Source: Phanerochaete sordida (Eukaryota > Basidiomycota > Agaricomycetes > Polyporales > Phanerochaetaceae). From it: a stretch of DNA of 64,000 bases. Under the pieces are notes generated by a model. That model searched no databases. It was not told the DNA's origin and saw only the letters and a list, made by a program, of their open reading frames with translations. The DNA is taken from the NCBI GenBank assembly GCA_019973155.2, contig BPQB01000043.1:217959-281958 (forward strand), read 5' to 3'. Shown one piece after another: positions 28,001 through 57,959 of the stretch. Both the position numbers and the translations under genes were made by a program. Position 1 is the first letter of the stretch. The number at the start of each line of letters is the position of its first letter.

Positions 28001-29755
28001 ATATTCCTCTCCGATTTCATCAGCTCGGTCTTGATGCGTACGAATGCTCCGACCTTGAAAGAAGCAGCAGCGATCCTCGAGGCGTTCGTACCCTTGGCAA
28101 GCTCGTATATGGCTGCATCGGTGGACTTCTCAAGACTCTACAACGTCCTTGCCGAGCTCATGGAGAACCCGGTACTGGGCTGCGACACCGATTTCTCGAA
28201 ATTGATCGTCTCGCAATATTGTCGTCTCGGCTTAGATGCTTGCGAAGCGGCAGCATCGGAGGACTTCCTCTTCACATTCCCTCTTCGCGAAGCCCTTGTC
28301 AAGCTCCTCGTTAGTTCAGCAGCGAACTGCGGCCCGGATGTAATGTCGGAGCTCGAGAAGCAACCTCTCAGCCATAATTTCCTCGCGGGGATCATCCTAC
28401 CGATGACATTGTTGCTCAGGACCTCGAACGATATCATGGAACAGGGCCAGTGGAGAGACAGCTGGCAGCGCGACACGTACTCGAAGATCTGGTTGCGCTT
28501 GCTGGCTCTCATCCTGGGCGTACTCAAGGGAGAGCAAATGGTGGCGGACCCAGCCATGAGCGCGGCGGACCGTCGCAAATCTTCAGCGGACCAATCCTCG
28601 AGATCACAGTCCTTTGCTTCCGTCAAGGCGTTCAGCATTGCGCTTCAGATTCTCAAGATCATTGTGGTTCGCGCGCAAGACGACATTTCAGAAGCTTTTC
28701 CCGGAGTCTGGATTCATGTCGCAGGAGTCCTCAAAGCGGTGTTGGAGGACGGTGACGCCATGTTCGCTTTCAGTTTCCGCGACGTCTCCGAGCCGCCTTC
28801 ACCAGCATTCTCTCCGCGGCTCGGCGATTCTTTCGATCAGCAACAACAGCAGCTGTTCCCAACATTTGCCTCTACTGCGTCCATGCATTCCCGCAAACGC
28901 TTGATACCTCCACGGATGATCGACTACCTCACCTGGTCATTCATCCAATGGCTATGGCTCAAGCGCAGCCCGCTTATGATACAAATGCGCATCTTCATTC
29001 AGGAGCGTGTCGCCAATCTCTCGAACGAGATGCGACAACAGGGCTCGCAGTCTATTAGCGCGGTAGGGAGCGCAAGCCGCCGCAGCCAGCGGTACTCCTC
29101 GATCTTCTCCAAGCCCCGCAAGAGCATGCTCGGCGGGTACAGCCCGACGAACTCCGCGCCCTCGACGCCGCGCCACTCCGCCTTCCTCCAGGGCTCCGTC
29201 TCGCTGCCCGTCCTCAGCGACTTCCCGTCGCCGAAGCTCACGGCCTCGCAGAGCCTCGGGCCGCCGCGGCAGGCGGGCTACGCGCGCATGCCGAGCCCGA
29301 TCTCGCCGTCGGGGCGGCTGTCGCAGGACTCGGGCGGCCCGCGCATCGTGCACCTCGGCCCCGTGAGCAGCCCGTACGCGGGCGCGGGCGCGCCGCGCGC
29401 GTCGCTCGACGTGCGCCCCGACACCGCGGGCCGCTCGCTGCGCGCGCTCGCGAAGGAGATGGGCGTGCGCGCGCCTGGGCTCGTCATGATGACCTACCGC
29501 CGCATCCGCCTCGTGCAGAAGCTCATGGGTTACACGGAGCTCCTGCCGCTCGCCGGCTCGCAGTTCTACGCGGACGAGGACGAGGGCGACCTCGACGCCG
29601 ATATACGCGTGTGGAGCCAGCGTGACGCGATCGATGCGGTCGTGGAGGAGACGAGGGACCTGTTGGACGAGTTCCGGGAGAGCTTCGGGGATGTTGGAGA
29701 CGAGAGCATGGTAATGGTCGACTCGCAGCTGACCCTCATTCAGGACTCAATGTAG
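22098..29755 (+). CDS. Very large helical-repeat protein, UNC80-like family
   Basis: Twelve exons: 22098-23147, 23214-23633, 23687-24043, 24097-24210, 24264-24629, 24681-24746, 24802-24890, 24943-25093, 25148-25402, 25477-25532, 25584-27001, 27054-29755; 2347 residues in frame. The intron 25533-25583 is 51 nt and could be read through in frame, so 17 residues are uncertain. Residues 1-165 are Pro/Ser/Lys-rich and disordered; most of the rest is amphipathic helices of HEAT/armadillo character (for example SKLIVSQYCRLGLDACEAA). The last 250 residues are again Ser/Pro-rich, ending in a short helical region and an acidic end. Size and layout resemble basidiomycete proteins annotated with the UNC80 C-terminal domain; animal UNC80 supports the NALCN cation-leak channel, whose fungal relative is Cch1. 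This family call is from memory of the pattern and needs a profile search. Confidence 0.6.
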
Positions 29756-29974: not shown

Positions 29975-32900
29975 TCACAGCTTCTCTCCCGCAAGCCACC
30001 GCTGATAGAGCACCAACACCTCTTCCCCCTTGTCGTACGGCGCCTATGTCATGCCGCGTCAGCACCGTATCCGCCCCGTTGATACCCACAAAGACGCACC
30101 ATGTGCCCCGCGCCACGGACAGTCGCGAAGACGAGCTCGCCGGAGCCACGAGTGACACCTACAGCGCGGCCGTGCACACTCCACTCGCGGAGGGGCTCCC
30201 CGCGGAACGCGTCCGCGCCGCCCCACTCGAGGTTCAGCGTCATCTGCTCGTTACCGACCTGCCGTCTCACCCTCAGCTACTAGCTACAACAGGTAATAGA
30301 GAAAGAAGACGCACCCAGTTGCAGACCCAGTCGTTCTCGCCCACGTACAGCAGCACGCGCACGCCGCGCTCGAGCAGCGCCTCGACGTACGTCTCCGTCG
30401 GGAACACCTCGTCGAGCGACGCGTCGAAGCGACGCCCGACGGCGTTGTTACACATTTGGAATGCGGACGGTACGGCTGCGTCGACGCCGAGCGCCGTGCG
30501 GATCGAAGGCCGCGAGAGGAACGCCGCGATCTCCCTGCGGGGGTGTCAGTGAGGGAGAGTGGGCGGCGGAGAGAGGACAGACTTGAGGATAGGGTAGCAG
30601 AGCGTGTCGGAGAGTTCTTCGGGGGTGCTAGGTGGGGCCTCGTTAGAGAGCGTGGTGAGGTATCGAGAAACGGAGGGTGTCGCACCAGGGTTTCGTGATG
30701 TCGTAGACGTTATGGCCCGAGGACAGGAACGGGCTTTGGATATACGTAGCGCAGAAGGACTGGGCTGCGCGGCAGTTGATCGGGTCCGTCGTGTGGTAGC
30801 ACGCCTCCTTGAGCCATTTCTCGCAGCGGGGAAGCTGTCCAGGAATCAGCGATGAACACCATATTGAGAACGCGCGACAGACAGCTCGCTTCATCTCAAC
30901 ACAGGTGCTGCACGGCAGGACTTAGCTTCGCACTCAGAATCAAAAGCGAGTACTTTACCTGATGCCAAGCACGGGTGCGATGGTCCTGTTCTCGCACACT
31001 TGCTGGTAGTGCGCAGGATACATTGTCTTCCAGTCCGTACATCCATTCTCTAGCTCGCTGAGTAAGTTGGCAGACCAGTTGATTCGATATATGCACCCAC
31101 GTATGATGATGGAAGTCAAGTTTATTGGCGTCATGCCGGCCGCAACTAGCCGAGGGTTCTGGTCGTAGACGTACGATGCGAAGGTTGGTATGTATCGCCC
31201 CTGCACGCAAAGAATGTGAGACAGGATGCAAGTAACAAAGGACCGCAACGTACGCCATAGGACATGCTGGCCATGTGGAACGCTCGGCCTTTAAACTTGC
31301 TGAAGTGCTCGAAGAAGATGGCTACAAAGGCAGCAACGTCCTTGGCCGTTTCTTCGGATGTGCTCTGACGTGGGACGGTCACAAGACGAACTTGGATAGC
31401 CCTCTGGGAGAGCACTCACGACATATTCTCCATGGTCCGCGTACGAAAAGCCGACGCCGATTGGCAGGTCGACGAAGAAAACGTTCGCGTTTTCGGTCAA
31501 GGAGTACGGGTTGAAGGTGACATTGTGGGCGTCGTTCACCTTGCAGGGCCCTACACGGAAGGTATACGTGAGCTCAGCGGAGAAAGGTGAGAAGCGTAAG
31601 ACGCACCCAGCTCCATGAACACACTGTGGGATCGGTCGTGGGCGAAAACCGCCCGATTTTGACATGCGAGGAAATGCCGCGTAAGTCGGGGAAGAATCCC
31701 AGAACATGCACGAAAACCTGGCGTTCGAAAACGGGCAGTCCCTGGGACAAAGATCCCGCGATATTTCCGGTATCCCCATGTCCTCGACACACCTGTATCC
31801 GGGAGTTAAGTCCTGCAGAGCGCAGACCGGGTCTTTATTGTCATATAACGCAGTATTTAAGCTTTGCTCTCGAGCTTTATCCACACAGCAGAAAGGTAGG
31901 GCAGCAATAATGATTCGATTGTAGTGTACACTAATACAACAATACAGTGTAATGTACAGAGGTTCCAGGGCACTAAATGCTACAGACTCGTTGCAGTACA
32001 TGCACCGGCACGCGAAAAGATGTAGAACATACCAACGGCAGCGCCCCGCCGTCTCCCCTGACGCTATCTGCTGAGGCGCGCTAGGGACGGCATTGGGGTT
32101 CTGTACAGCACGGCAGCGCATGTAGAAGTTGAGGATACCACAGGTAGGGCTGAGGGCGGTGTACCTGATGAACGCGTGAGCATTCAGTTCGAGACGCGCC
32201 AGAGACACGTACCGCTGCGAATTGTGCGCGAGATCTTCCGGCAGGGCGAGCACGACGACGAACCGGAATGTATATGGAGGGGACTTAAAGTCAGATGCGG
32301 CGATAGGGTCAAGCAGGATACAGCGTACCATGCTCCAGAATCATACATCTGCTGCCTGTGTGATCACCTATTGACTGAAGCGAGGGGGGAAGGCTCGATG
32401 TCAGCATATCATTGTGAAGGTACGAGCCACACGGCAGACCTCTTTATCGTCACGGCCCGTGCAATGAACCGGGGCAAAAACGCCAACATTGCGTGAGGGG
32501 AGAGTCAAGAGGAGAGGTGTCGCGGGGAATGGAGGGCGCAGAGGGGAAGACGCGGCAGCTTATATACGTCTTGGACCGTGTGACGCGACCTGGGACTTTG
32601 GCACAAGGCGCGAGGGGCGTGACCGCGGCGCGCGGCGCGACACGTTCCGTGTCATTGCCGCCAAGTCCGACCGCCTCGGGCTGGAGCGCAGGCTGCGCTT
32701 GCTTCTGACTATCATCCATGCAAGCCGTGCCGCCAGCCCACACAATGCACTCGCCGCCTGCTACACTATGCACCACCAACATCCTGTCGACAACAACGTT
32801 ATGAGGTACTACGCCCTTCAAGGGGACATGAAGCGGGTCAGAGGAGGGCGCGACATGCATGCTACGAGCATGTGGGTGTACTATCTACCTGGATTGTGAT

Positions 32901-34133: not shown

Positions 34134-35414
34134 ATGAAGTGGAAAGACTTTGAAGCTTTCATCACGGTTGGTGACCATAATATAGAGGAGTATGATGTGA
34201 AAGACGACGGCGAAAACAAAAAGACAGGCTGGATTGCCAGCGAAGAGGGCGCGGTGGGTGGCACATTGTGATCATCTCTTGCATATACTCACGAGCCACG
34301 CATGCATTCCCTTTACTTAGTCTTTTGCCATCAAGGTACAAAACAAGTCGTCTACAGCCGTCTCGTGTACCGTGTACATAGATGGCCGCCTCTTGAACCA
34401 TGTGCTTATTCGACCAGGCCTACTCCAAGAGATCAACGGCGCGCGTATAACACCTGTGGTCATCCGACCGTTCATCTTTTCGCGTATCAGCGTCTCTGAC
34501 GGTGAGCCTAATGTCGTTCTGAACCACTCTCGTCTTAACATTCCTAGATGACGCTCTACTGCATCAGGATATCAAGAATCTTGAAGCCATCGGCACTGTC
34601 CGCATTCTAATCCGACGCGTCACGGTCGACGAAACTTCGACGAGGACAAGGCAATGCTTCAATTATGAGACTGAAGATATCGGGATTGTCCATGAGCGCA
34701 AAAAGAAGGCGGGGGTACACTGCGTCTCGTACGTCAATCGGCTCATTTGCAGTCGTCTGGTCTCTCTCAACAGACGTGCGAAGTCTTGGGAAGGAGATCA
34801 CGGAGCAACGAGCACAAACCGTAGTCGACGTACAATACCACGACACTGCGGAGAAACCTCATTGCGTCTTCCTTTTCCGTTACCGATCGAAAGGTTCGCG
34901 TCGCACTGATAGCACGACATACTATGGCTCATGGGTTCCCCAGACTTCCTCCAGGCACAGGGAATTCTCCCGCTGCCAATCTCTGCTCCCATTCAAAGGC
35001 AGGTAACCCCCACTAGCAATATACAAGCTCGAGCAGCTGGGTCATCGGCACAACCTGTAGGCACTGCAGCCAATACCACCAAGAGGAAGCGAAAGGGATC
35101 TGGTCCGTAAAACGGTCTTCACTTCGGCCCCAGACTTCTATGCTTACTTTCCCGTAGCTGCGCAGAAGTCAGGAGTCAAAGAGGAGTCAGATGACTCAGA
35201 CACCGAGGACGCGGACGCGATACAGGTGCGCCCGCTTTGCCTTGTCTCAATAGCGGTGTAATTGAAGACGATGTGTACGCAGGCCCAGCTCGACGCGCTC
35301 CAGGCGAGGCTCTCCAAAGCCAAAAAGAAGGATGCGCGCAAACGCGTCAAGCGCGAGCCGAGTCCCATCCTGATGCAGACGAGCGGGGATATCATAGATC
35401 TCACATCCGACTGA
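34134..35414 (+). CDS. DUF7918 protein, tandem copy 1 (subfamily A)
   Basis: Seven exons: 34134-34253, 34321-34501, 34548-34728, 34784-34893, 34944-35102, 35158-35225, 35283-35414; 316 residues. Residues 1-205 form the DUF7918 domain known from basidiomycetes: EEYDV near the start, GWIASEEG at the end of exon 1, HERKKKAGVHCVSLG, and EKPHCVFLFRYRSKDFLQAQGI. Then a Ser/Thr/Gln linker with a nuclear-localisation-type KRKRKG, an acidic stretch preceded by VKEE, a short helix QLDALQARLSKAKKK, and the terminal module RVKREPSP...DIIDLTSD. VKRE fits the sumoylation consensus and IIDLT a SUMO-interacting motif. Function of DUF7918 is unknown; the layout suggests a nuclear protein. First of six head-to-tail paralogs. 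Confidence 0.88.
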
Positions 35415-35784
35415 AGTCACTCCTGCGGTATCTCTTTGGCTATTGTTGAACACACGTTAATGCCATTGAAGGCTACTGTTTCAATAATCATTAATCAATG
35501 CCACTGTCGCCATACTAGACGTCACCAGCCCCAGAGCGAAAGTTTGCTAGAGGGACTTGCGAAGCTGCAGCCCAACTGCAGCCTGCATGTTCTGTGCGTG
35601 GTCCGACTGCACTTGATGCCTTGGGGACGTACTGACGCGTCATGAGCGCTCAGCAGGTCGTCGATGTGCAGCCCTATGGACCTCAGTCATATGTTCCGAC
35701 TTGTGGTGTCTTCCTTTTCTTGTTGCGAAGCAGCACACGAGCCCGAGATGGACGCCAGCCTGGTCGGACGTCCTCGCCGTTCTG

Positions 35785-35790
35785 CACGTG
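35785..35790. promoter_or_regulatory. CACGTG box upstream of DUF7918 copy 2
   Basis: Palindromic E-box-type hexamer 113 bp before ATG 35903, within CACGTGACATAGCG. Similar boxes precede copies 3 and 6. Confidence 0.35.
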
Positions 35791-35902
35791 ACATAGCGTG
35801 AGAGTGTCGCTTAGCGTCGCGTGCACGCCTGAGCCGTGTGCAGCGAGGCGTCTCTTAAGTGCGAGACACCACGTACGACCCTCTACGACGACTTTGGAAG
35901 GC

Positions 35903-37156
35903 ATGAAGTGGAACGACTTGGAGGTGTCCATCATTAGCGGCAGCAGCGACGTGTTCGAAGAATACGACGTGGCAAATGTCGGCGAAAATGAGATGGCATG
36001 CTGGGTTATCAGCGAAGAGGACAAGGCGAGTCCTCATGGCACCTGACTGCTTCATCGTGCTAAAAGAGCTTGTCCTACTAGGAATTTGTAATCAAGGTCA
36101 AGAATACACATCCCGATGTTGCCGTGAGCTCGCAGGTAGAACTCGACGGCCGCGTAATGGACCGCGCTTTGTGGCCACCGAGGACTGGAGGCGAAGTGGG
36201 GGGTGCATGGGTATCCCCTAGCTCCCTCCGTCGTTTCCGATTCGGTCGGATTAATATATCTGATGGTGAAGTCTATTTCTAAGCTGACGACTCTGATTTC
36301 TTGACGGATTCCCAGATGATACCCTCCTCAAAGTCCCTCAAGACGCACAAAAGCTGGAGGCTATTGGCACCATCTGCTTAAAATTCCGGCGCTTCAAACT
36401 CAACGGGACCAAATCCGTAGACGGGCAGCCCCGTCGCGGCCTCGATACAACTGATATAGGCGTACTACACGAGCGCAGGAAGAAAGTAGGAGTCCACGTC
36501 GTATCGTACGTGCACCATGACCACGCCGATCAAACGAGTCGCTCACTGTCACTAAGCCTAGGGGAAGAAGTTGTCCGGCCAAAGCCGATGTGCTTCATGC
36601 ACGGAGAATATGTAGACACCATCGACGACCCGCAGTGTGTTTTCATTTTCCGGTATCGGCCCAAAGGTCTGTTGTTCTCGCAAAGCAGTTCTCACAAGAC
36701 TTATGTATGTGTTTCGAAGGCATGCTGCAGGCTCTAGGAGTCATACCCCTGTCGCCACCGGAGCCTAATCCTCCGAGATCCGAGAAGAGGCCGCGGGAGC
36801 GATCTGGCAAGTATAGCGGGAGCTGTCGGCCTAGTGATTGTCCTGACCAACCCTCAAAAGCGTCGGTTGAAATCATCGGCACCAAGATCAATGATGGCCA
36901 TGGATTGACCCTCAATGAGCTGGAAGCAAAGAAGGTGTGTGTCTTCACAGCTACTCATATCCTCTGGGCGCTGCTGAACTGCGCTCTCCAGGCGGCCGCG
37001 GCTGCCGAGCAGGCCCATTACGACATGATGATAAGCTCACTTAGAGAACAGCGGAATGGTAGGCGCAAGCGGATCAAGCGGGAACATAGCAGTCTCCTCC
37101 AGCCCAACGACGGTGACGGCTTGGATGTCCTCGACCTGACATCCAACTCAGAGTGA
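35903..37156 (+). CDS. DUF7918 protein, tandem copy 2 (subfamily A)
   Basis: Six exons: 35903-36025, 36082-36265, 36316-36505, 36557-36666, 36720-36934, 36992-37156; 328 residues. The domain core is kept: EEYDV, CWVISEED, HERRKKVGVHVVSLG, PQCVFIFRYRPK. Intron 1 (36026-36081) starts GCGAGT, a GC-AG intron, where the other copies have GT. At the place of intron 5 in the paralogs the sequence GCAAGT...AAAAG (54 nt) is in frame and without stop, so I read it through; splicing it as a second GC-AG intron would remove 18 residues. The C-terminus diverges most in the array: RIKRE followed by a three-residue-longer spacer and DVLDLTSNSE. Both the sumoylation-type site and the SIM-type core are still recognisable. 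Confidence 0.85.
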
Positions 37157-37347
37157 CATCGCCTCGAGCCTCTGAACCCCATCCTTTACCGTGGTGTGAT
37201 GGCAGTTTGATTGTTTATCACACAGGACCTCCACCGAAATATATTACCTTCCTCTCTTCAGCGCGGTTTTCTGACCTATATACGCGGTGGTTCGCTCGAG
37301 AGAGTTACCAGTGAGATCTCGAGAGTCGTAACTTGAAAGTACTCGAA

Positions 37348-37353
37348 CACGTG
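37348..37353. promoter_or_regulatory. CACGTG box upstream of DUF7918 copy 3
   Basis: CACGTGACC 80 bp before ATG 37433, followed by GACGCAACGCGCG and TTGACGCGGACG, the same mixture of ACGTGAC and GACGCG words found upstream of copies 2 and 6. Confidence 0.35.
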
Positions 37354-37432
37354 ACCAATCTCGCGCGTGACGCAACGCGCGTCTGTGTCCACTCGCTCCT
37401 TGACGCGGACGTCGACGACGCCAGGTCGCAGT

Positions 37433-38696
37433 ATGAAGCGCAATGGCCTGGAAGTCACCGTCGTCGTCGGCAATGAGCCCCTATCTGAGTATACAATCGC
37501 AGAGGAGGGCGATAGCACGGTGATCTGCTGGATACCCAGTGAAGAGGGAAAGGTGGGTTATCTCCAACCTTTCGCCAGCGCGCGCCATGTTCAAGAGAGC
37601 CTCTCAGGAGTTTAGTATCAAGACAGTCAACGATACGCCTTCGACAATCATAACATGCGAAACGGACGTCGACGGCCGCTCCATGGATCGGACGATCTGT
37701 CGAGCGAAAGCTAGCACACTCGTGCGGGGCACATATTCATCCGCATCAGCGGTTCGGCCGTTTACCTTCACCCGCATCGGCGTGTCAGATGGTGGGAAGG
37801 CCTTTTATAGTGAGATACCATATCTGTTAACTCGTCGAAGACGACGACCTCCTAGACACGGACAATGCGAACATCGAGGCGATAGGGACAATCCGAGTGA
37901 GCGTACGGCGTGTTGAGGAGCTCGAGAAAAGGGCGTTCGTCGCGGGCGAGTACGATACTACTGAAATTGGGCTCTTGCATGAGCGTCGGAAGAAGGCTGG
38001 TGTCCACTGTGTGTCGTAAGTGCATATCCTGCGCCGCCGACCTCCACAGACTGACCAAGCGTTCAAGTCTGGGCAAAGAGATCGCGCTACAGAAGAAAAC
38101 GAATCGTGGTAGCGTGGGCGTAGCGTATCTCGACACCCCCGAGAAGCCGTATTGCGTCTTCATCTTCCACTACCGATCTAAGGGTGCGTAATCCTGTCGG
38201 GCCGCACGAGCACGAGACTGATTTGGACGCCTGTCAGACATCTTGCAGGCTCAAGGGATCATTCCGACCATCGTAGCGCGGCCCAGCGGTGTGGCGTCGT
38301 CTAAGGGCGCAAGCGGTAGACCAGCGCGTGCATCCCCTGTGCAGCACATTGCTTCGAGAGCCGTGAAGAGACAGCGAGAAGGCTCTTGTAAGTACGAGAG
38401 TATACACTGATACAGAGGGTACTCACGCCTCGTCTTAGTACCAAAGGATTCAGATGTCAAAGAAGAGGCCGAGGAGTCGGACATGGAGGATGCGGACGCA
38501 TTACAGGTGGGCTTTTGTTCCGCTTGTCTTGGTGCGATGCACACGACTCACCGGCTTTTCCAAGGCCGAGCTGGAGGCTATCCAGATCAGACTATCCAAG
38601 GCGAAGGCGAAGGCAAGCCATAAGCGTGTCAAGCGGGAACCCAGTCCAATACTGCTCGCAACGAGTGGGGATGTTATTGATCTTACTCTGGACTAA
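37433..38696 (+). CDS. DUF7918 protein, tandem copy 3 (subfamily A)
   Basis: Seven exons: 37433-37552, 37608-37791, 37841-38015, 38068-38183, 38238-38387, 38439-38506, 38565-38696; 314 residues. Domain landmarks: LSEYTIAEEG, CWIPSEEGK, LLHERRKKAGVHCVSLGKE, TPEKPYCVFIFHYRSKDILQAQGII. The linker holds a basic AVKRQRE, then SDVKEEAEESDMEDAD, a second sumoylation-like site inside an acidic stretch. The helix AELEAIQIRLSKAKAKA leads to RVKREPSP and SGDVIDLTLD at the C-terminus. VIDLT is the same core as the SUMO-interacting motif of animal PIAS proteins. It shares with copy 1 the SLGKEI start of exon 4 and the exon-6 wording, so copies 1-3 form one subfamily. All introns here are GT-AG. Confidence 0.88.
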
Positions 38697-38762
38697 TTGA
38701 TGGTCATAATCGGATGGAAATATTGCTCACGAATGTGCTATACCCGCACTAGGTGGGACGCT

Positions 38763-38843
38763 GCAAGCGTGTCAAACGCGAGCTCACTGAGCCCGATCCG
38801 GCTGACAACGAGCGGAGACATAATCGACCTCACAGAGGACTGA
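38763..38843 (+). pseudogene. Solitary relic of a DUF7918 last exon
   Basis: Only 66 bp after the stop of copy 3, AAGCGTGTCAAACGCGAG reads KRVKRE, the conserved sumoylation-type module. One frame over, from 38790, the sequence reads SPIRLTTSGDIIDLTED and stops at 38843. The two parts together match the terminal module of the array but are separated by a frameshift. No other exon of a DUF7918 gene is seen in the 66 bp before it. This is a left-over 3' end of a lost copy or of an unequal crossover. Confidence 0.7.
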
Positions 38844-39492
38844 GGGGCTTTCGTTGGTGCTCAGTTCGAGGAACATGTACACAGCTAAACGTCGCAGGTC
38901 TTTTTGTCAATATGCAACGCTCCTGTTCGCTGACCGAACGCTGGCTATGTGGTGGTCCGCGCCGTGTCTAGTACTACTGGCGCCGCCAGAGTGGTGGCGT
39001 CAGCGTCAAATATAGCCGCTGAGATCTGAGAGCGAGACCGAGCGAAAGCTTTTCTTCAACCGATCGCCCATGATCCCCACAGATGAAGTACCGGGAGCTA
39101 GAGATCTCAATCCAGGTTGATGAAAAGCCTCTGGAAGAGTACGATATTGCCATAAATGACGAAGAATGCACCATAACATGCTGGATCCCTAGCGAAGAGG
39201 GCAAGGTAAGACGTGTCTTGCACAGGTTGGCGTTGGTTCGCTGCACAAGCTTTGCTGAATACAGTCGTATAGGAATTTGTCATCATGCGTCGAAATCATT
39301 TCCATGAGCAGGATGTGTCAATGAGCGCGACTGTAGATGGTCGCAAAATCATACCTGGCTCGTTCATTCGTCACAGGGAGCACCGAACGATGTACGGCCA
39401 AAGAGTCAGCCTGGAAAGTGTCCTGCCCTTTAAGTTTGCCAAGCTCCAGCTGACAGATGGTCCGTCGCTTGTTTCTCGCTGGTATACAGTTA

Positions 39493-39677
39493 TTAGCCGC
39501 CTTGTGAGACACGACCGTCTGGTGAGACACCTGCCTTATGAGGCAATCAGGCGCCCCATCCCGACGCTGGGGCAACCGTGGCGCCAAGCTCCCAATGAAA
39601 GCCTCTCGGGACTGGGCGCCCAATTCCCGCATAAGGCAGGTGTCTCATCGGACGGTCGTGTCTCATAAGGCGGTTAA
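39493..39677. mobile_element. MITE-like hairpin element in intron 2 of copy 4
   Basis: Two 48-bp arms, 39493-39540 and 39630-39677, are inverted copies differing at only a few positions (ends TTAGCCGCCTTGTGAGACACG and, reversed, TTAACCGCCTTATGAGACACG). Pairing continues weakly inward, so the whole 185 bp can fold into one hairpin. It has no coding capacity. It lengthens intron 2 to 251 nt against about 50-60 nt in the paralogs. The target-site duplication cannot be fixed because the flanks are A/T-rich (TTAT/TAAT). Confidence 0.7.
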
Positions 39678-40105
39678 TGACTGTAATATGGAAAGACTTA
39701 CAGCTAGCAGACGAAGGTCTCTCATCGGGCCTGGGCCAAAACCTCGACGCGCTCGGAACAATCGAGATCCGCGTCCAACGCGCGACAGAACTCGGGCCTA
39801 AATACGACATAGTCGCGATGGAAACGGCAGAGAACGCCATTGGCCCAGTACACGAACGAAGCAAGAAGGCCGGGGTGCACTGTGTTTCGTATGTGCTTCG
39901 ATTTATCTTACGTCTCCCCGCTCACGCCTGGGACAGCTTCGGTAGGGAAAGGAGAGTAGGTGGCACCAGCCACGGAGTCAGCTGCACCTACCGCGACACC
40001 CTGGACCAGCCGTACTGCAAGTTCGTGTTTCGCTATCGCTCCAGAGGTGAATTCGCTGTCGCGCAGATGCAGTCGCTGTACTCACTTGGCTCTAGACATG
40101 CTATT

Positions 40106-40744
40106 AGGGGAGTTCAGAGTTCGATTCTGAGCTCGATTCTGGCTCGATTCTGGGTGCGATGCGAGTTTGCAGAATCGAGCGGTTCCGGGGTCCCGGGAGG
40201 GCGATTCTGGCTCGAAATGCGAGAATCGCGGTTCTGCGTCGAATCGCCTCCGGAGGCGATTCGCCGCTCGATTCTGCGCGATTCCGCTTGGTTTTCTACT
40301 GCTACCCCTCGATACCTATGCAGTCCTGTCTTCTCTGACCACAGTAGTACTCGATTCTGGTGTCTGTCGGCTCTCATTCGATGTATAACATATCTCTGAC
40401 CCAGAATCGAGCCTTCAAGGCTGTTTGGAATGCAATTAAGACTGCTAGATCGCCATTCCCGTCATATTTCGAGCCCAAGGGCGTTTCAATATATATCTAT
40501 AGCATGCAGGAGTCATGAAGACATAGAATCACGCTACAGATATACGCTTGCATCACGCGGTAGCGTAAGTTGCGGCATTCGAGTCCGCATTCGAGGCTGG
40601 AATCGAGGCTGGATATTGCAGGCGCGAGACGGGTTGTTCAGAGTCAGAGGCGATTTGATGGAAAGTTTGCTTTCGGAATCGCGTTCGCATTCCTCCAGAA
40701 TCGCGCTCAGAATCGCCCCAGAATCGCCGACTCTGAACACTCCT
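40106..40744. mobile_element. 639-bp MITE-like element inside exon 5 of copy 4
   Basis: The ends are imperfect inverted repeats (AGGGGAGTTCAGAGT at left; AGGAGTGTTCAGAGTC read inward from right), followed on both sides by repeats of CGATTCTG/GAATCG words. A perfect 22-bp palindrome, GAATCGCCTCC plus its reverse, lies at 40241-40262. The flanks show a 3-bp duplication, ATT at 40103-40105 and 40745-40747 (equally readable as TAT). Removing the element and one ATT restores D-M-L-L-A-Q-G-I-I in frame, as in copies 5 and 6, so this is a recent non-autonomous DNA-transposon insertion. No transposase frame is present. Confidence 0.8.
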
Positions 40745-41474
40745 ATTGGCTCAAGGGATCATTAACATCCCTGCACAAGCACCACGGCTGGCGTCCGTTG
40801 CTTCTCTCCTCAGGAAGCGGCCTGGTGGTCCTGAACAAAACCGTACCGGCTCCGGCCATGGCAGCAATAAGAGGCCTCGGCACGAACGAGGTGGGTTCTT
40901 CCTGGTCTAGAGGCGTTATTAGGCACTGAATCATTGCCTAAGCTGACGCTCGGGTCAAACCTATCGTCAAAGACGATCCAGATGCCCCTGGTGACGAGAA
41001 CGACGCAGCGCTCCAGGTAGCTTTGCTACTACTAGTAGAGCTCTGCTGGTCGAAATCGCTGACAACTGCAACCTTCCAGGAACAGTTAGACTCGTTGCAG
41101 GCTAGCATGGACGCCATCCGGGCCAAGCTGAATAAGTCGAGGGCGAACATGGCCAAGCGCGAGCCGAGAGGAGCCGAGTCCAATAAGGATGGCCTCGAGC
41201 GGAGACGTCATCGACCTCACGTTTGATTGAAACCCAGTCAAAGCTGGTACACTTGTCCTGCCCGCCATTCGTATGATATCCTTCAGCGGCTCTGATATAC
41301 TACTGTGGTGTCTTTAAGCATGGTCATACATTGCGTGGTCTCAACAGCGTAAGTACCCTGGGTGGCTGCCTGACTCCTCCAAAGAACTGGCGCCCGGCCA
41401 AGGCCGAGCAGTGGCGTTCGACCGTGGGCGCCAGACGCCACGCAACCTGCTTTCCTACCAACCACCAGCACACT

Positions 41475-42745
41475 ATGAGATACAAAGATATCGACATCTC
41501 TGTCCAAGTCGATGGGAAAAGTCTGCCGGAGTATGCAGTGACGACTGACGATGCAGAACGGACCATGACATGCTGGATCCCCAGCGAGGAAGGGAAGGTT
41601 GGACAACGCGCGCGCTCCCCCCGTTTACATTGCTCATGCCGGGTACCATCCTAGGAATTTGTCATCATGCGACGCAACCGTTCGAAAGTACACGAGGTGT
41701 CGATGAAGACCTGTCTGGACGGCCGGCAGATGCCGTCTGACTCGCACTTCCGCCGCAGATCATCGAGGAAGATGTATGGCCAGAGAGCTAGCGAAGATTC
41801 TATTCTCCCATTCAAGTTTGCCTCAATCAAGCTTACAGAAGGTACATGTTGCGAAACGCGATCTGCGAGACTGCATATGCTGATATCCTCCCAGAAGAAG
41901 GCCACGTGTCTTCCCATAAACTCGATCTCGACGCTCTTGGGACCATCGAGATTCGCGTCCTTCGCACGGAGGGAAAAGGGAAATATGCTACACCCATTCC
42001 CATTCAGGACCTAGCTGAAGACTTTGGCCCCGTGAATGAGCGAAGTAAGAAGGCTGGGGCTCACTGTGTTGCGTACGTCCCCTTTGTTATAGACCAATCG
42101 CTACGCACTCACATGAGCAGTTTCGGGGACAAGAAGAAGTCAGGCAAGCCGAAGGAATTAGTTCGACACAAATACTTGGACAGAGTGGATAAGCCGTACT
42201 GCAAGCTCCGGTTTCGCTATCGCTCGAGAGGTGATTTGCGAGCCCCTTGCGTATTATAGTCGCGCTCCACGCTAACAAGCTTTGCAGATATGCTGTTAGC
42301 ACAAGGAATCATGGCTGATCCTGCCCCTTTACTCCCTACTGCCTCAGGCTCCAAGAAGCGATCGCACGTGGCTGAAGTAGACACCGCGGATGCTGCTGGG
42401 ACAAGCAACAAGAAAGCTCGGCTTAACCCAAGTGAGTGCTTCCGACGTCCCAATGTATCGTTTCCATTCATCGATGATCGCAGAAAGCGACTCTGTGGCC
42501 GTCAAGGAGGACCCAGAGGCACTTGACGACGAGGACAGTGTTGAGTTGCAAGTGAGGCGCTCCGTTCACGATGCTTATGGACGCTACTCACGGATTACGC
42601 GGAGGCCCAGCTAGAATCAATGGAGGCAAATCTGGCAGTTATGCGCGCGAGACTTGACCAGGCGAAGTTGAAGGCCGTCAAACGCGAGCCAAGTCCTATC
42701 AGAATGGTGTCGAGTGGGGATGTCATCGATCTGACGTCGGATTGA
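41475..42745 (+). CDS. DUF7918 protein, tandem copy 5 (subfamily B)
   Basis: Seven exons: 41475-41597, 41655-41841, 41895-42072, 42121-42230, 42288-42431, 42484-42551, 42605-42745; 316 residues. Landmarks: SLPEYAV, CWIPSEEGK, EFVIMRRN, MYGQRAS, LPFKFAS, VNERSKKAGAHCVASFG, DKPYCKLRFRYRSRDMLLAQGI. These wordings are shared with copies 4 and 6 and define subfamily B. The linker has NKKARL and KKRS basic patches, then VAVKEDPEALDDEDS, a sumoylation-like site in an acidic run. The helix AQLESMEANLAVMRARLDQAK precedes AVKREPSPIR and SGDVIDLTSD. All splice sites are GT-AG and the frame is intact, so this is probably a working gene. Confidence 0.88.
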
Positions 42746-43046
42746 CACTGGCTAGCGCAGCCGTATCACCAGCAGCCACATCACTTTTCACTGCTCTATT
42801 GCACACAGTGTGGGCTGTCAGAACGTCCCAGCATTCTTGTACTGTATGTCGTCAATAATGTCGTCGGCAACAGTGGTTGTATGCATGTATGCTGCAGCTC
42901 TCTTAGTTGCTATAGACCTCCACCTGTATCAGTAACAGCAAAAGTTCTGCGAAGAGTGTGATCTCAATATCTGTACGGTCGCATGCATGCAGACTCACGA
43001 ACCTCAAGGCTCTGACGAGTGACTTTGGCTGTTACGCGATGGGCGT

Positions 43047-43089
43047 CACGTGACACGCTGTGTCTTCAGACGCGTCGCTGTGTCACGTG
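43047..43089. promoter_or_regulatory. Two CACGTG boxes upstream of DUF7918 copy 6
   Basis: CACGTG occurs at 43047-43052 and again at 43084-43089, 82 and 45 bp before ATG 43134, with an ACGCGTCG word between them. Repeated E-box-type sites suggest a shared bHLH-type regulator, which is inference. Confidence 0.35.
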
Positions 43090-43133
43090 GACGTGATAGC
43101 TCTTTCCCACCAGCCACGACCACCTCTGTCCAC

Positions 43134-44466
43134 ATGAAGTACAAAGGTGTCGGCGTCTCCATCCTGGTGGATGGACAGCCTCTGGAGGAGTATTCTGCTA
43201 CCGTTGATGAAGCAGAGAATACCATCACCTGCTGGATAGCGAGTGAAGAACATAAGGTTCTTCGTGCTGGCTCTGCTGTTCTGACACTCTACTGACGAAG
43301 AATGACGCGCTAGGACTTCACAATCAAACGTTATAACGATATGGATACCCATGGCGCATCATTCGAATTCTTTGTTGATGGCCGTACCGTGAACCGAAAG
43401 GGTCATAGTCGTCCTGGAAAGTCTGGATGCACCTATGGCCATAGAGTTAGCCAAGACACCGTTCTCCCATTTAAATTTACAAGACTTTTACTCACCGATG
43501 GTAACTGCTTCTCATGCTTATATATTAACACCCCGTTAACTTGGATAAATCTCGTGCAGACGATGCATCATCATCGGGTCATCCACCTGCCAATGTCGAC
43601 GTGGTCGGCACCATTGAAGTCCCTGTGAGGCGCTCGACATCCATTTCGGAGGTCAAGTGGCCTAGGAAACTAGGCAAGCTAAGAAACAACGTCGTGGCCA
43701 TGCATGAAAGTACCAAGAATATCGGAGGCCATTGTGTTGCGTGCGTTGCTCCCTTCCGGACTGCGCATGGGCTGAGATTCTGTGCGGGCAGTTTTGGCGC
43801 AGCAACCAAGATTCCCTCTAATCCAACACTCCACGTCGAATACCTAGACCCACCAGACATGCCATATTGCAAGTTTCGTTTTCGGTATCGCTCCAGAGGT
43901 CAAACTTGGCGTTCAATACTCTAGATCCTAGAGCTTACACGTCTTGCAGATATTCTTCTAGCGCAAGGGATTATACCCGCACCCTCTATCTCTCCAGAAC
44001 TTGCTCCTTTCGCGTCTACATCGTCCATAGCGTTGAATTCGAAGAAACGAGCCGCGGCTGCCGAGCCTTCCAGCGCAGCCGGCCCCAGTAGTAGCAAGAA
44101 GGGGCGGCATACCGCAGGCGAGTCTTGGGCCCAACAGAAACGGTGGGGAATGCACTCATCCGTACAATTTGCAGAAGTCGTGCAGCTACCAATCAAACCT
44201 GACCCGGATGGTCGTTCCAACCAAAATGCGTCGCTACAGGTAGGACGCGCGAATGTTTTGCCCGTACCTTGCGTCGACGTCTCTGACGGTATCCAAATCA
44301 GGCACAACTGGATGTCATGGCCGCAGCGATGGACACCATGAGGGCGAACATGGATACAATACGCGCGCAGCTCCAAAACAATGACATGGATGCAGCCAAA
44401 CGCGAGCCGAACCCGATAACGATGACCACTAGCGGCGACGTCATCGACCTCACGGACGATGACTAG
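43134..44466 (+). CDS. DUF7918 protein, tandem copy 6 (subfamily B)
   Basis: Seven exons: 43134-43256, 43314-43500, 43560-43740, 43792-43898, 43950-44117, 44175-44239, 44302-44466; 331 residues. Landmarks: PLEEYSA, CWIASEEHK, YGHRVS, LPFKFTR, MHESTKNIGGHCVASFG, MPYCKFRFRYRSRDILLAQGII. Intron 5 (44118-44174) begins GCGAGT; it is a GC-AG intron of 57 nt without an in-frame stop, so read-through would add 19 residues. The linker has KKRAAAAE and SKKGRH basic patches. The terminal module is AKREPNPI followed by SGDVIDLTDDD, with the most acidic tail of the array, which should favour SUMO binding. Last member of the tandem series; MSH6 follows in the opposite orientation. Confidence 0.87.
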
Positions 44467-44736: not shown

Positions 44737-47700
44737 TTAAGCGGCGGCGGCAGCAGCAGTGGAGTGGTCCAAATATCCCTTAGCAGCGGCTTTCAAGACC
44801 TTAAGCACCTCCCTCCTTCGGACCTTGTCCGCGGGCAGCTCCGCCTTGCCAGTGACCAGACTGAACAGGTAGGCAAAGTCGGCCTGGACAGACAGTGGCA
44901 GCCGCGAAGTGCTACCCTGCTTGCCGGCTTGCATCTTCTCCTTGAACTGTTTTGCGAAGTCGTCCGAAACGACCTCCGCGCGCTGCACAACCTCCGGCGG
45001 GACGCCGGCGAGGTTGGCGACGTGCGTGCCGAAGGAGGAGGAGGCGACGCCCTCGACGAGTTTGTAGAGGAAGACGAGCTGCGCGGGTGTCAGCTATCGA
45101 GCTAGTGGGCAAGACTTTGGTGCGTACCTCCCGCTTTTCGTCGTCGACGTGGGTCGCCATGTGCATGGTGCGGATGTTCGGATGATACGCGAAGTCGTCC
45201 GTGAGCGAGCCGTAGTGGGTCGCAAAGAATGACAGCGAGAGCGTGTGGGTCGCAAGCTCGTGCAAGACCGCGCCAGCAATAGCCATGCCATCCTAACGAG
45301 TTTCGTTAGTCGAGCCACATCAATGCTGAGGGCTGCTACTCACGTAGGTCGAAGTTCCTCGGCCAAGCTCTGAGCTCGGAATGTCAGTTTCAGCACGCTT
45401 GCAGTGACACGTTACACACCATCGAGAATTACCAACGACCGTGGCGTCGCCTCGCGCAATATTTTGCAGCTAGTGTCAGGAGATCAGACTCGGCGTGACA
45501 GGAGAACACAGAACAGAAGACGTACCACTCATCAAGCTCGACCTTGAATGTGCTTGCATTCGAGAACATGTTGTCGTAGGCACCCATGCGAGTAAGAATC
45601 GCGTCCACGGGGCACAGTCTCGCACGTCTGGCTGGTACAAACATTCCGAGCTGAGCCATGATCTTCATCATACGGTTAGAAGATCAAGCACGGAATAATA
45701 TGCAGCACGTACCACCCCTGCAGCCGTCATGCGCATCGCCTGAAGAAAGATCAGTGTTCGATTTACAGCTAAAGCCTGGTATCAGAACTAACAGTAGATT
45801 TGCCTCTGTGCAATTGGTCAGTCATGTGCCTTGTATGCGATGCTCACCATTGCACTCACCCCATGTTCGGGCCAGTCAACAGCGCGATCCTGCCCACACC
45901 CTTGCCGAGCTTGACGTCGTTCGGGATAAAATCGCCTCTGAACCCGGCGCTGACACTCAACGCCGGGTGCCTGAGCTCGTCGAAGTCGATGAACGCCTCG
46001 TCACCAGCGACGAATTCGGGCCTGCACGCCGGCTCGCCAAGCGCGACCGAGGATTTCGCAAGCGAGAAGAGGCAGTCGAGCTCCGACAGCACGCGGATCG
46101 CGCGCAGCCACACGGAGCGGTCCCTGTCGAACTCGGCATACACCCGGTCCTTGAAGGATTTGATCGCAATTTTGCGGTTTTCGCGTGCTTCCTTGAGTGA
46201 ACGGATCGTCGTGGCGAGATCAGGGACGTTCCACCGGGTGACAGCCTGCAACAGCGTTCAGCGCGAAGCTGAACCAGAAATCTAGTGAACTACCGACCTT
46301 CGTACCACTGCCCTTCGTCCAGCTGGCCGGAACCTTTTCCTTAGGCTTTGTCTGCACTAGGTAAATTTCCTGCCAATACCGGTCAATCTCTGCAAACGCA
46401 GCCTTGCTCTGCGAGGCGTACTTTGTTCCCTTGAGCGCTGTGCCAGTAGGACAGCTTCAACCTAGCGAAGTTGTCAACGTGGTGCTACGCTTGATGTTCT
46501 GCCAGTACACACCCAGTCTTCTTCTCGAGCTTCTTCAGCTCCTTATCCAGAGTATCCTCGAGCTCTCTGATTTCTTCCATGACCGCGTCGTACTCTTCGT
46601 CTTTGCCCTCCCGAGGCATCAATTCGTCGACTGATTAAGTTCCAGGATTAGCGAAAGGCGCAAGTTTGAGTACAATGATAAACACACCGCCCTCGACGTC
46701 GAACAACGCCCTGACGTTCTTGACGTGAGGCGACAGATCCGGTGCACCCCTGAGAAGACCGGCGATGGTCTTCGAATCAAAGCCTTCGGCTGTGTTCGCA
46801 AGAGTGGACAAGCCCTTGCTGAGGGTCTTGAAAGACTGTACGAGAGCCCGTGAGCATCGTCGATTGTAAGTTAGAGGTCGCACGTACGTCTAGGACTTTC
46901 AGGAAGTCCTTGACTTTGCAGTTCTTCGCGTGGATACGCGAGACAATGCGCTCGAGGTCCCCGAGACCCTTTGCGACCTCGCTGAACTCGGCCTCGAAGG
47001 ATGGGTGGTTCATGAGGTCCTGTACCGCATCGAGCCTGCCAAAAGCCACGTTAGATGAGGTTTCAGCAAGAAAGCGTCGCATATAACCCACCTAGCGTTG
47101 ATGTCATCGATCTCTCGGAGGGGCATGCACAGCCAGATGCGGAATAGTCGCTTGCCTAGTACCAGTCAGACACCGGCATGCGATCTACAAATGCATAAAC
47201 TCACCAGAAGGCGTGACACAGCGGCTGAGGAGCTTCAACAATGAGCCGTCCTCTGTACCTTCGCTATTGACCAGAACCTGGCGGAAATGCTCAGCACAGA
47301 TACCCCACTACCACCGTAGCCACACGTACCTCGATATGCGCCAAAGTCTGCCCATCGAGGACCAAGCCCTGCCCCTTCTTCATCGGGTCATACACATTGA
47401 AGTTCTTCATCGTCAGGATGTCCTTGTCGATGTTAAGGGTGCGCAGGTACCAGATCATCGAGCCGAGCGCCTCGACCGCGCCGCGGGACTGGATCATGCT
47501 GAGGATCGCCTCTGGCACGGCCGCGCTGAGCCCGTGCGGCCGCGGCGCGAGGTCGTCGTCGTCGTCTGCCGAGGGCGGATACAGCTCCTTGAGCGCCTTC
47601 AGTGTGTCGTTGAACGAGAGGCCCTCGGAGTCGCGCAGGCTCGTCCACAGGCAGTTCGACGGCAGGATGGACTTGAGGAGGCGGGTCGTCGGGACGGAGA

Positions 47701-49739
47701 GGTTGCCCTGATCGTCGCATGAGCACGTCACCTCCAGGCTATACCATGTGTGAGAGCGCACCTTAGTGAAGATGATCTCTTTCGGCCGCAGCTGCCGGAC
47801 CATCGTCTCGAGCTTCGTGCGGCAGACGTCGTCCTCGAACGCGCTGAGGTTGAACTCGCTCGTGCTGCTGTCGAGCACGCACAGCCCGAAGGTCTGTTTG
47901 CCAGTCTTAGGGTCTTCTTCGCCGTCCTCGCGGATCGCGACGCAGTGCCCCGCTTGTTCATCCGTGAGGAGCGCCTCGTCGACGAGCGTGCCGTTCGTGT
48001 ACACCTTGTTCAGTTCGCGCCGCACGATCTTGTCCGCGGTGCTTGCCTTCGCTTTCGTCTTGCCCTTGTCCGCCGCGACGCGCATCTCGGCGCCGAGCGC
48101 GGTCTCGGCTTGGTCGACGCGACCGACTTTGTATCCTATGTGCGACTGTCAGAAGAGTGCGGAGGAACTATGCGATATGAGTACCTTTGGCGAGGAACTT
48201 CGCAGCCCAAAAGTTGAAGTTCTGCTCCGGCACACCGACCATGCTCATCTTGACGCGCTGCGTCAGCTTGAGGTCGAATTCTTGGTGACCAATGCGTGCA
48301 TCTTCCTCATACAGCTCGAGGAACTTGCCCTTCTGGAAGAACAGAACAGTATCAAAGTGGTTTTGCTTGATCTCCCAGAACTAACAGAGCATTGATCAGC
48401 ATTGTACGCACACAAGCGGCTGCGACGTGCACCAACCTGCTTCTCGAACGGCGTGAACGTCTTCCACGCCTTCGGCGGGATGTACAGCGTTCGGGGGTCG
48501 TACCCCTGCTCATTCGGGCGCGCGCCGTCCTTGTCGCGGACGTCGAGCAGGAAGTCGAACGGGTCTTCGCCACTCTTCTTCTCCTCCTTCTGCGCCTGCT
48601 GCCGCTGCTCGGCAGCGGTGAGGAAGATGTTGCTGCTCCCGCGCTTCACGCCCGGTTTCTTGCCGACCCTGGGGCGCTCGCGGTGCGAGCTCGGTTCAGG
48701 CAAGCCGTCTTCGCCCTCGGACGCGGATGTATGCGCGTAGTTGGAAAGGCGAGAGGACGCGCGGGAGGAGGAGGTTGAAGCGCGGGACTGAGGGCGCGTG
48801 TCGTCGTCGTCGTCGTCTTGATCTTCGTCCTCGGAGACGTCGTCGGGAACAATGAAATCGTCGTCGTCGTCTGCCTTGGATGCCTTGCCTATGAGAGCGC
48901 CATAGTGAGTATGGATACATACTGTCACAAGCTGGTTCAGCGTACGCTTTGGCTTGGCCTTCGCTGGAGGTTTGAACTTTGTGAGCCTCTGGGAGAAGGA
49001 TGAAACATCCAGCTCGTCTTCGTCTTCGTCATCGGACAGTTCGACAGCAATACGCTGCTTCTTCGCACGTCCTACGGAGCAGTGAGACACATAATTACGC
49101 CAAAGCCCTTTCCAGTGCATACCTTTCTTCTCCTCAGGCTCAGGAGATGGCTTGTATGCGGACAGACCTTGCTTGTAAGCATCCGCGTCTAAATCCTGAA
49201 TCTCGTCGTCCGAGTCTTCGAACACCAGCTTGCGTTTCTTCCTAGTCGGAGCAGTCTGATACGCGAATCGCTTTAGTACGAAGTCAGACGCACGAACAGG
49301 CAGCCATAGGACTCACAGTAGCCTTAGCCTTCTTTGGTTTCTCTTCCTCGTCCGGCGACAGCATATCAACATCTATGGGGTCGCTCGTCGGCGGCGTTTG
49401 CGCATAGCTCTCAGCACCGTCGGAGCTGCGTGTGAATGTCGCGTCCACGACGACACTCGACCGCGACGCGCTCTTTGACATCGGGGTGCGCGCCTCAGGC
49501 ACGACGGGATCCGAGGACGTGTCGTCTGACCCGCGCGCTGGGAGTGCCCGCGACGCGTCACCTGCTTTCTTCGGCCTCTCAGGCGCAGGCACGGCCTTCG
49601 TGGTCTTCGGTTCCGCGTCGCTCGACGCAGATCCCGCGGCGGCGGGTGTCTTCGCGAAGAAAGACATGAGACTCTTCTGCTTCATTTTGCCGGCGTTCTG
49701 GCTGTCTTTCGCGGGTGTCTTTTGGGTGGCTGGCGCCAT
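44737..49739 (-). CDS. MSH6: DNA mismatch repair protein MSH6
   Basis: Twenty-two exons on the minus strand join in frame to 1295 residues. Main ones: 49739-49317, 48888-48437, 48380-48185, 48135-47762, 47707-47330, 46245-45860, 45292-45128, 45078-44737. Near the N-terminus KQKSLMSFF is a PCNA-binding PIP box, followed by an acidic, Ser-rich linker typical of MSH6. The mismatch-binding domain begins [37 protein letters not shown] matches the Phe-x-Glu region, here read as KGKFLELYE. The ATPase has Walker A TGPNMGGKST, split over three exons with a 13-nt micro-exon (45805-45793), Walker [17 protein letters not shown] and the SFFATHY His loop. MutS-alpha (MSH2-MSH6) recognises base mismatches and small loops. 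Only an alanine-rich C-terminal end is unusual. Confidence 0.95.
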
Positions 49740-51012: not shown

Positions 51013-51076
51013 GACGGTGAAGGATAAGAAAGGGAGATGGACGTCCGCCCTCGCGGCGCGGCGCTCACGAAATATT

Positions 51077-56073: not shown

Positions 56074-57959
<1,886 letters not shown>

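What the first reader, a model, noticed from the sequence alone, without database searches (positions are those of the whole stretch)
34134..44466. Tandem array of DUF7918 paralogs that all end in a sumoylation site plus a PIAS-like SUMO-interacting motif
Six head-to-tail genes share one domain and one exon plan, and the last exon of each encodes a short module: (V/I/A)KRE, matching the psi-K-x-E sumoylation consensus, then 14 residues from that Lys (17 in copy 2) a VIDLT, IIDLT or VLDLT core with acidic or polar neighbours. VIDLT is the core of the known SUMO-interacting motif of PIAS proteins. A protein that can both be sumoylated and bind SUMO, present in many local variants with nuclear-type basic patches, could form SUMO-dependent assemblies or act as a diversified nuclear effector. 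The DUF is of unknown function; the sequence pattern is seen, the role is inference.
Basis: partly seen in the sequence, partly recalled or inferred. Interest (0 to 1): 0.86.

Follow-up and report, generated by a model that had tools for sequence, protein, structure and literature searches.

The report
Fungal DUF7918 proteins with SUMO tails
A row of related fungal genes encodes proteins of unknown function whose intact copies end in the same short tail, predicted both to be tagged with the small protein SUMO and to bind it, and most relatives found in other fungi keep the core of that tail.

Summary
The window (Phanerochaete sordida) carries six head-to-tail DUF7918 genes. Five are intact, each with seven exons and identical intron phases. 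Copy 4 is broken: an inverted-repeat insertion lies in exon 5, and its AKRE and VIDLT are in different frames.

The tail was tested outside the array. Of 131 family proteins with a complete domain, 119 end in DLT within 6 residues of the C-terminus; 112 match the published SIMb pattern, and 103 of these also carry psi-K-x-E close by. In 63 cluster representatives (all tail-bearing) psi-K-x-E occurs 96 times (10.8 in shuffles) but psi-R-x-E only 6 (11.4), which argues against a plain nuclear signal. Two ascomycete (Coleophoma) proteins share the IDLT end, one with VKRE. The fungus's own PIAS-type gene (PINIT and SP-RING) has VKRE and IIDLTLD too.

Best reading: a SUMO-regulated, probably nuclear adaptor made of a beta-sandwich domain, a disordered linker, a helix and a SUMO-substrate/SIM tail. 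SUMO binding and sumoylation are untested. The homolog searches leaned towards tail-bearers. A predicted fold match to large DNA virus proteins is an open lead. No paper in the searched library names DUF7918.

The parts
34134..35414 (+). c1 (PsYK624_110390), DUF7918 gene, exons 34134-34253, 34321-34501, 34548-34728, 34784-34893, 34944-35102, 35158-35225, 35283-35414; 316 aa
   Evidence: identical public protein P0002
35903..37156 (+). c2, DUF7918 gene, 7 exons (two GC-AG introns), 310 aa
   Evidence: no public protein for it among the hits
37433..38696 (+). c3 (PsYK624_110410), DUF7918 gene, 7 exons, 314 aa
   Evidence: identical public protein P0001
39083..41230 (+). c4, broken DUF7918 copy: insertions in intron 2 and exon 5; AKRE and VIDLT out of frame with each other
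41475..42745 (+). c5 (PsYK624_110430), DUF7918 gene, 7 exons, 316 aa in my model (314 in the public one)
43134..44466 (+). c6 (PsYK624_110440), DUF7918 gene, 7 exons (one GC-AG intron), 331 aa
   Evidence: identical public protein P0003
35346..35357 (+). c1 VKRE (psi-K-x-E)
35391..35405 (+). c1 IIDLT (SIMb core)
37073..37084 (+). c2 IKRE
37127..37141 (+). c2 VLDLT
38628..38639 (+). c3 VKRE
38673..38687 (+). c3 VIDLT
42677..42688 (+). c5 VKRE
42722..42736 (+). c5 VIDLT
44395..44406 (+). c6 AKRE (Ala in place of the large hydrophobic psi residue; weaker consensus)
44440..44454 (+). c6 VIDLT
35175..35186 (+). c1 exon 6 VKEE followed by SDDSDTED (acidic, NDSM-like second site)
38456..38467 (+). 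c3 exon 6 VKEE followed by AEESDMED
42501..42512 (+). c5 exon 6 VKED (weaker, D at +2)
44192..44203 (+). c6 exon 6 IKPD (weaker, D at +2)
38756..38843 (+). remnant of a second last exon behind c3: KRVKREL and SGDIIDLTED in different frames
39485..39685 (+). inverted-repeat (MITE-like) insertion in intron 2 of c4, 80-nt arms 86% complementary
40100..40750 (+). inverted-repeat-ended insertion in exon 5 of c4 (arms 40100-40120 and 40730-40750, 81% complementary)
41152..41221 (+). c4 last exon: AKRE (41152-41163) and VIDLT (41207-41221) in different frames; a short tandem duplication lies between them (seen by eye)

Best explanation
DUF7918 proteins are SUMO-regulated, probably nuclear adaptors. 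Predicted anatomy: an N-terminal Ig-like beta-sandwich (about residues 1-206), a disordered basic linker, one helix, and a C-terminal SUMO module. In the module one to three psi-K-x-E lysines accept SUMO, and a SIMb core, (V/I)(I/L)DLT at or within a few residues of the C-terminus, holds SUMO. The likeliest working is that the SIM captures Ubc9-bound or substrate-bound SUMO. That promotes modification of the Lys usually 11-17 residues upstream, and in trans it links sumoylated partners, while the sandwich domain picks the partner. The sandwich diversifies by duplication and the SUMO module is held constant. Shown here: gene models, conservation, enrichment and specificity of the motifs, order of parts, predicted fold. 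Inferred: SUMO binding, sumoylation, nuclear location, assembly, partner choice.
For: (alignment A4, 80 of the 138 proteins then held): weighted frequencies V .82, K .92, E .91, then I .97, D 1.00, L 1.00, T 1.00; these K, E, I, D, L and T columns are among the 40 most informative of 314 positions; terminal DLT in 119 of 131 complete-domain proteins, SIMb pattern in 112, 103 of these also with psi-K-x-E in the last 46 residues; reversed motif at the end 0 of 131. (63 of 64 usable clusters, those with a DLT end): psi-K-x-E 96 in 55 proteins versus 10.8 shuffled (maximum 19), psi-R-x-E 6 versus 11.4, reversed E-x-K-psi 6 versus 10.8; SIM cores before the terminal one 13 versus 0.1; acidic NDSM-like site in 14 of 64 representatives versus 0.5. 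Both Coleophoma proteins (Ascomycota) end in TIDLTSD or TIDLTSDS, one with VKRE upstream. The own-genome gene with PINIT (1.6e-25) and SP-RING (9.3e-18) carries VKRE and IIDLTLD. SIMb = [PILVM][ILVM]DLT (PMC3395311, passages). A PIAS1 VIDLT peptide binds SUMO2 with KD 16 uM (PMC3901395, passages). Two AlphaFold models give a confident domain, a low-confidence linker and tail, and one helix.
Against: No biochemistry. Psi-K-x-E often overlaps a basic KRVK stretch that could be a nuclear signal. c6 has AKRE and c2 lacks the exon-6 site. 12 of 131 complete-domain proteins lack the DLT end (several look truncated or mis-spliced; not verified). 10 of 64 representatives have no psi-K-x-E after the domain. 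The core fails the strict SIMb pattern in 7 of the 119, both Coleophoma proteins included. The two large homolog searches used profiles that contained the tail, scored only 7,995 candidates each, and one search listed the best 120 of 129, so counts lean towards tail-bearers. The domain-only search returned only its query and one relative, too few to correct this. The 63 representatives were chosen for a DLT end, so their terminal SIM count is no test. No expression or localisation data.
Confidence: 0.66

Rival explanations
1. The tail is a nuclear localisation signal (KRVKxE, like the c-Myc type recalled from memory) plus an unrelated protein-docking peptide; sumoylation plays no part.
For: KRVK precedes many sites and the linker is basic.
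Against: Lys-Arg before the site is poorly kept (.37.38) while V, K and E are kept (.82.92.91). Arg does not replace the Lys: psi-R-x-E 6 observed versus 11.4 shuffled. Two or three psi-K-x-E sites stand before the SIM in 54 of 118 SIM-ended proteins. The docking peptide is exactly SIMb in 112 of 131.
Confidence: 0.14
2. PIAS competitor: the proteins carry the substrate/SIM tail of a SUMO E3 ligase without its SP-RING, and act by competing with PIAS for SUMO, Ubc9 or SUMO-bearing sites.
For: The own PIAS-type gene shares VKRE and IIDLTLD. No PINIT or SP-RING was found in 5 of 5 array proteins.
Against: The shared tail is too short to show descent. Spacing differs (32 versus 14 residues). The family is widespread, not a recent PIAS fragment.
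Confidence: 0.12
3. Read the other way: a SUMO-directed E3-like cofactor in which the SIM clamps Ubc9-SUMO and the sandwich domain presents a substrate; the tail lysines are autosumoylation by-products.
For: Fixed SIM with variable psi-K-x-E number and spacing. Some viral proteins with a similar predicted fold are named RING-type or ubiquitin-like.
Against: The lysine is as well kept as many domain-core positions, unusual for a by-product. The RING-type and ubiquitin-like viral hits have E of 0.001 or worse.
Confidence: 0.06
4. The motifs are inherited ornament of a local array, or shared by gene conversion, with no constraint outside it.
For: All 7 family matches found in this genome lie in one array (a lower bound).
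Against: The tail is seen in relatives from many other genera and its IDLT end in two Coleophoma proteins. The tree groups c1-c3 with P. carnosa and c5 with c6.
Confidence: 0.02

Closest known systems
DUF7918 (Pfam PF25534)
   Same: Five array proteins match it; in c1 the match covers residues 8-207.
   Different: The Pfam model (228 positions) covers the domain alone; in c1 the SUMO tail lies beyond the match. No paper in the searched library names DUF7918 or PF25534.
PIAS/Siz SUMO E3 ligases
   Same: VIDLT/IIDLT SIMb (PMC4907222, passages); in P. sordida also VKRE before it.
   Different: No PINIT or SP-RING found in the array proteins; a different N-terminal domain; SIM at the C-terminus.
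PML, Daxx and other sumoylated SIM proteins (general knowledge; PML also in the listing)
   Same: SUMO site and SIM in one protein, suited to SUMO-dependent assemblies.
   Different: No sequence relation looked for or seen; function is shown for those, not for these.
Uncharacterised proteins of giant viruses, baculoviruses, ascoviruses, iridoviruses and nimaviruses (BFVD models)
   Same: Predicted fold: best E 4.3e-11 and 7.4e-11 from two separate fungal models.
   Different: Sequence identity 5-17% in the rows with E at or below 0.001; SUMO tail not examined there; descent not shown.

Membership tests
DUF7918 (PF25534) | Pfam profile match above the gathering score | tested here: met
   c1 92.1 bits against a cut-off of 27; 5 of 5 intact copies match, best E 5.2e-27.
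SIMb class of SUMO-interacting motif | [PILVM][ILVM]DLT core (PMC3395311) | tested here: met
   5 of 5 intact array tails; 112 of 131 complete-domain proteins, array included, near the C-terminus. 7 others have DLT but fail the strict pattern.
SIMb class of SUMO-interacting motif | Binds SUMO | not testable with these tools
   No binding assay.
Consensus sumoylation site | psi-K-x-E | tested here: met
   c1, c2, c3, c5 have V/I-K-R-E; c6 has AKRE, which fails strict psi. 103 of 112 SIMb-ended proteins have it in the last 46 residues.
Consensus sumoylation site | Lys modified by SUMO in the cell | not testable with these tools
   No proteomics held.
NDSM extended site | psi-K-x-E followed by acidic residues, family-wide | tested here: not met
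   Present in c1 and c3 and in 14 of 64 representatives against 0.5 in shuffles: real in a subset, not family-wide.
PIAS/Siz E3 ligase | SP-RING and PINIT domains | tested here: not met
   Pfam scan of 5 array proteins at E up to 1 lists neither; the same library finds both in the own-genome PIAS-type gene.
PINIT fold (structure) | Structural match of the N-terminal domain | tested here: inconclusive
   Not seen among the 50 entries listed by VIA-align for either model; absence excludes nothing.
TEAD YBD / RhoGDI-like beta-sandwich | Clear structural match | tested here: inconclusive

The most novel reading that the evidence does not exclude
Mushroom-forming fungi possess a fast-evolving, duplicating family of SUMO-hub proteins, working like PML as organisers of SUMO-dependent nuclear bodies. 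Its N-terminal fold is shared by descent with proteins of large eukaryotic DNA viruses, so that one domain was moved between cells and viruses and in fungi was coupled to the SUMO system, possibly for defence against invading DNA.
Probability: 0.1. Interest if true: 0.92.

Novelty: new variant of a known kind. Interest (0 to 1): 0.72.

Why it matters
A domain of unknown function found across many Agaricomycetes gets a testable role. If the tail works as read, these are unusually clear SUMO substrate-plus-SIM proteins in fungi, with tail residues conserved on a par with the best-kept domain positions and attached to a domain that keeps duplicating. It would offer a handle on SUMO-dependent nuclear assembly in mushrooms, and it raises the question why large DNA viruses encode proteins of a similar predicted fold.

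Tried and rejected
Chance or composition: rejected by shuffles, reversed motifs and the psi-R-x-E control. Array-only feature: rejected by relatives. Plain nuclear signal: made less likely. PIAS membership: no PINIT or SP-RING found; PINIT was not seen among the listed structural matches, which excludes nothing. Solved relatives by sequence: one match at E 1.7 only. PDB by fold, first model only: no match with E at or below 0.001, best 0.013. PHROGs: 18 families, each matched by one of 80 members, best 0.00028 to a phage head protein, taken as chance. A first regular expression for the domain end failed for most proteins, and its null (n = 6) was discarded and replaced by an HMM. The acidic exon-6 site is not family-wide: 14 of 64 representatives. 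The PF11976 search of the genome mixes repeated ubiquitin-like genes with possible SUMO genes; I did not sort out which is SUMO, so the presence of SUMO itself is assumed. The tree is weakly resolved (5 of 19 inner branches starred). The literature search for the viral homologs gave only baculovirus papers in the 8 of 16 listed, not followed.
Full report
What is there. The window lies in an unnamed 40.8-Mb assembly of 222 contigs. Protein hits identify it as Phanerochaete sordida (Polyporales): P0002 (PsYK624_110390) is identical to copy 1. Spliced models were made for copies 1, 2, 3, 5 and 6 and rechecked. Each has seven exons, intron phases 0,1,2,1,1,0 and introns of 46-67 bases; three of the 30 introns are GC-AG. 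Public proteins are identical for c1, c3 and c6, and two residues shorter for c5. All five match DUF7918. A genome search with the Pfam model gave 7 exon matches at E up to 1, all in this array (such counts are lower bounds).

Copy 4. One search shows an inverted-repeat insertion in intron 2 (39485-39685) and another in exon 5 (arms at 40100-40120 and 40730-40750). The last exon holds AKRE in one frame and VIDLT in another. I treat it as a broken gene. Another out-of-frame last exon lies behind copy 3 (38756-38843). So the claim that the copies all carry the module is true for five of six.

The tail inside the array. The last exon reads KRVKREPSPI...SGDVIDLTSD or close to it. Mean pairwise identity is 62% in the tail, 38% in the domain and 23% in the linker. 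In the whole genome the DNA pattern for [VI]xDLTxD-stop occurs six times, five of them here: c1, c3, c5, broken c4 and the remnant. DNA for VIDLT without the stop is common: 38 matches against 20 for the backward control.

The tail outside the array. Three homolog searches gave 139 proteins, P0001-P0139. each scored only the 7,995 candidates sharing most words, one search listed the best 120 of 129, and both query profiles contained the tail, so counts may lean towards tail-bearers. The domain-only query (P0020, itself first found) returned only itself and one relative. Both are from Coleophoma, an ascomycete, and end in TIDLTSDS and TIDLTSD; one also has VKRE upstream. With copy 2 added, 140 proteins were scanned with a domain profile: 131 reach the end of the domain, and 9 were set aside, of which 8 also end in DLT. 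Of the 131, 112 end in the SIMb pattern within six residues of the C-terminus and 7 more in another xxDLT, together 119. The 12 without it are listed; several stop at what looks like an exon border, as if the last exon had been missed, which was not verified. Weighted by clusters at 60% identity (66, of which 64 usable), SIMb scores 55.2 of 64.

Sumoylation consensus. In 63 cluster representatives (those of the 64 with a DLT end) psi-K-x-E appears 96 times after the domain, in 55 proteins (10.8 in shuffles, maximum 19). Psi-R-x-E appears 6 times (11.4), reversed E-x-K-psi 6 (10.8), K-psi-x-E 3 (10.8), psi-K-x-D 6 (9.1) and psi-K-x-x-E 18 (10.7). Arg does not replace the Lys, which fits SUMO attachment and not a mere basic signal. 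The two residues before the site are poorly kept (K .37, R .38) while V, K and E are kept (.82.92.91) (80 of the 138 proteins then held). Among 118 of 139 proteins with a strict terminal SIM, 54 have one site in the 40 residues before it, 28 two, 26 three, 1 four and 9 none; in 95 of the 109 with a site the nearest Lys is 11-17 residues from the SIM. 14 of 64 representatives have an acidic NDSM-like site (0.5 in shuffles), and 10 of 64 have no psi-K-x-E after the domain. SIM cores before the terminal one number 13 in the 63 (0.1 expected); with a looser core and an acidic run after it, 12. The terminal SIM count is no test, since the representatives were chosen for it.

What the motif is known to do. 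SIMb is given as [PILVM][ILVM]DLT in PMC3395311 (passages read). PMC3901395 (passages) reports that a single PIAS1 SIM peptide binds SUMO2 with KD 16 uM, and a tandem one binds di-SUMO2 with 3.8 uM. PMC4907222 (passages) uses VIDLT to AADLT as the PIAS1 SIM mutation. The same P. sordida genome has one PINIT match. That locus (L024) holds PINIT (1.6e-25), then an SP-RING (9.3e-18), then a tail with VKRELSPS and, 32 residues after the Lys, IIDLTLDSDDED.

How it most likely works. The sandwich binds a partner. The tail is sumoylated at psi-K-x-E and binds SUMO through SIMb, in cis to aid its own modification and in trans to join SUMO-bearing partners. The conserved tail against a diverging domain fits a common output with varied input. 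Modification, binding, nuclear location and partner are inferred.

Known and new. SUMO sites and SIMs are known kinds. Their pairing at the C-terminus of DUF7918 proteins was not found in print: searches for DUF7918 and PF25534 each returned 0 papers, and listings for SUMO with Agaricomycetes (11 of 11 seen) and sumoylation with basidiomycete (15 of 47 seen) showed nothing on it by title and abstract start; full texts were not read. Only open-licence papers were searched. In the tree c1, c2 and c3 group with P. carnosa (99/99) and c5 with c6 (99/93), on long branches, so the copies look old.

Noticed in passing
   Followed up: partly
L024 (G000:C7, about 269003-270500): The fungus's own PIAS-type gene (PINIT, SP-RING) has VKRELSPS and then IIDLTLDSDDED, the same motif pair as the array tails, with 32 instead of 14 residues from Lys to SIM.
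   Followed up: partly
Mycena-type relatives such as P0023, P0025, P0026: A second SIM-like core, VLDLT followed by an acidic run, lies between domain and helix, and up to three psi-K-x-E sites stand in a row before the terminal SIM.
   Followed up: partly
P0013 (Steccherinum ochraceum): Public model looks like two neighbouring DUF7918 genes fused into one, with the KREASPI and KREPSPI tails both kept.
   Followed up: no
window 39485-39685 and 40100-40750: Two unlike inverted-repeat elements sit inside one broken copy; not classified or dated.
   Followed up: no
window 25381-29752, 31294-32340, 44740-48148, 50062-51084, 51742-53010, 56078-56956: Neighbours: UNC80_C-like protein, S10 carboxypeptidase, MutS homolog, CFA20-domain protein, fatty acid hydroxylase-like (just below cut-off), NSUN5-like. 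No evident link to the array.
   Followed up: no
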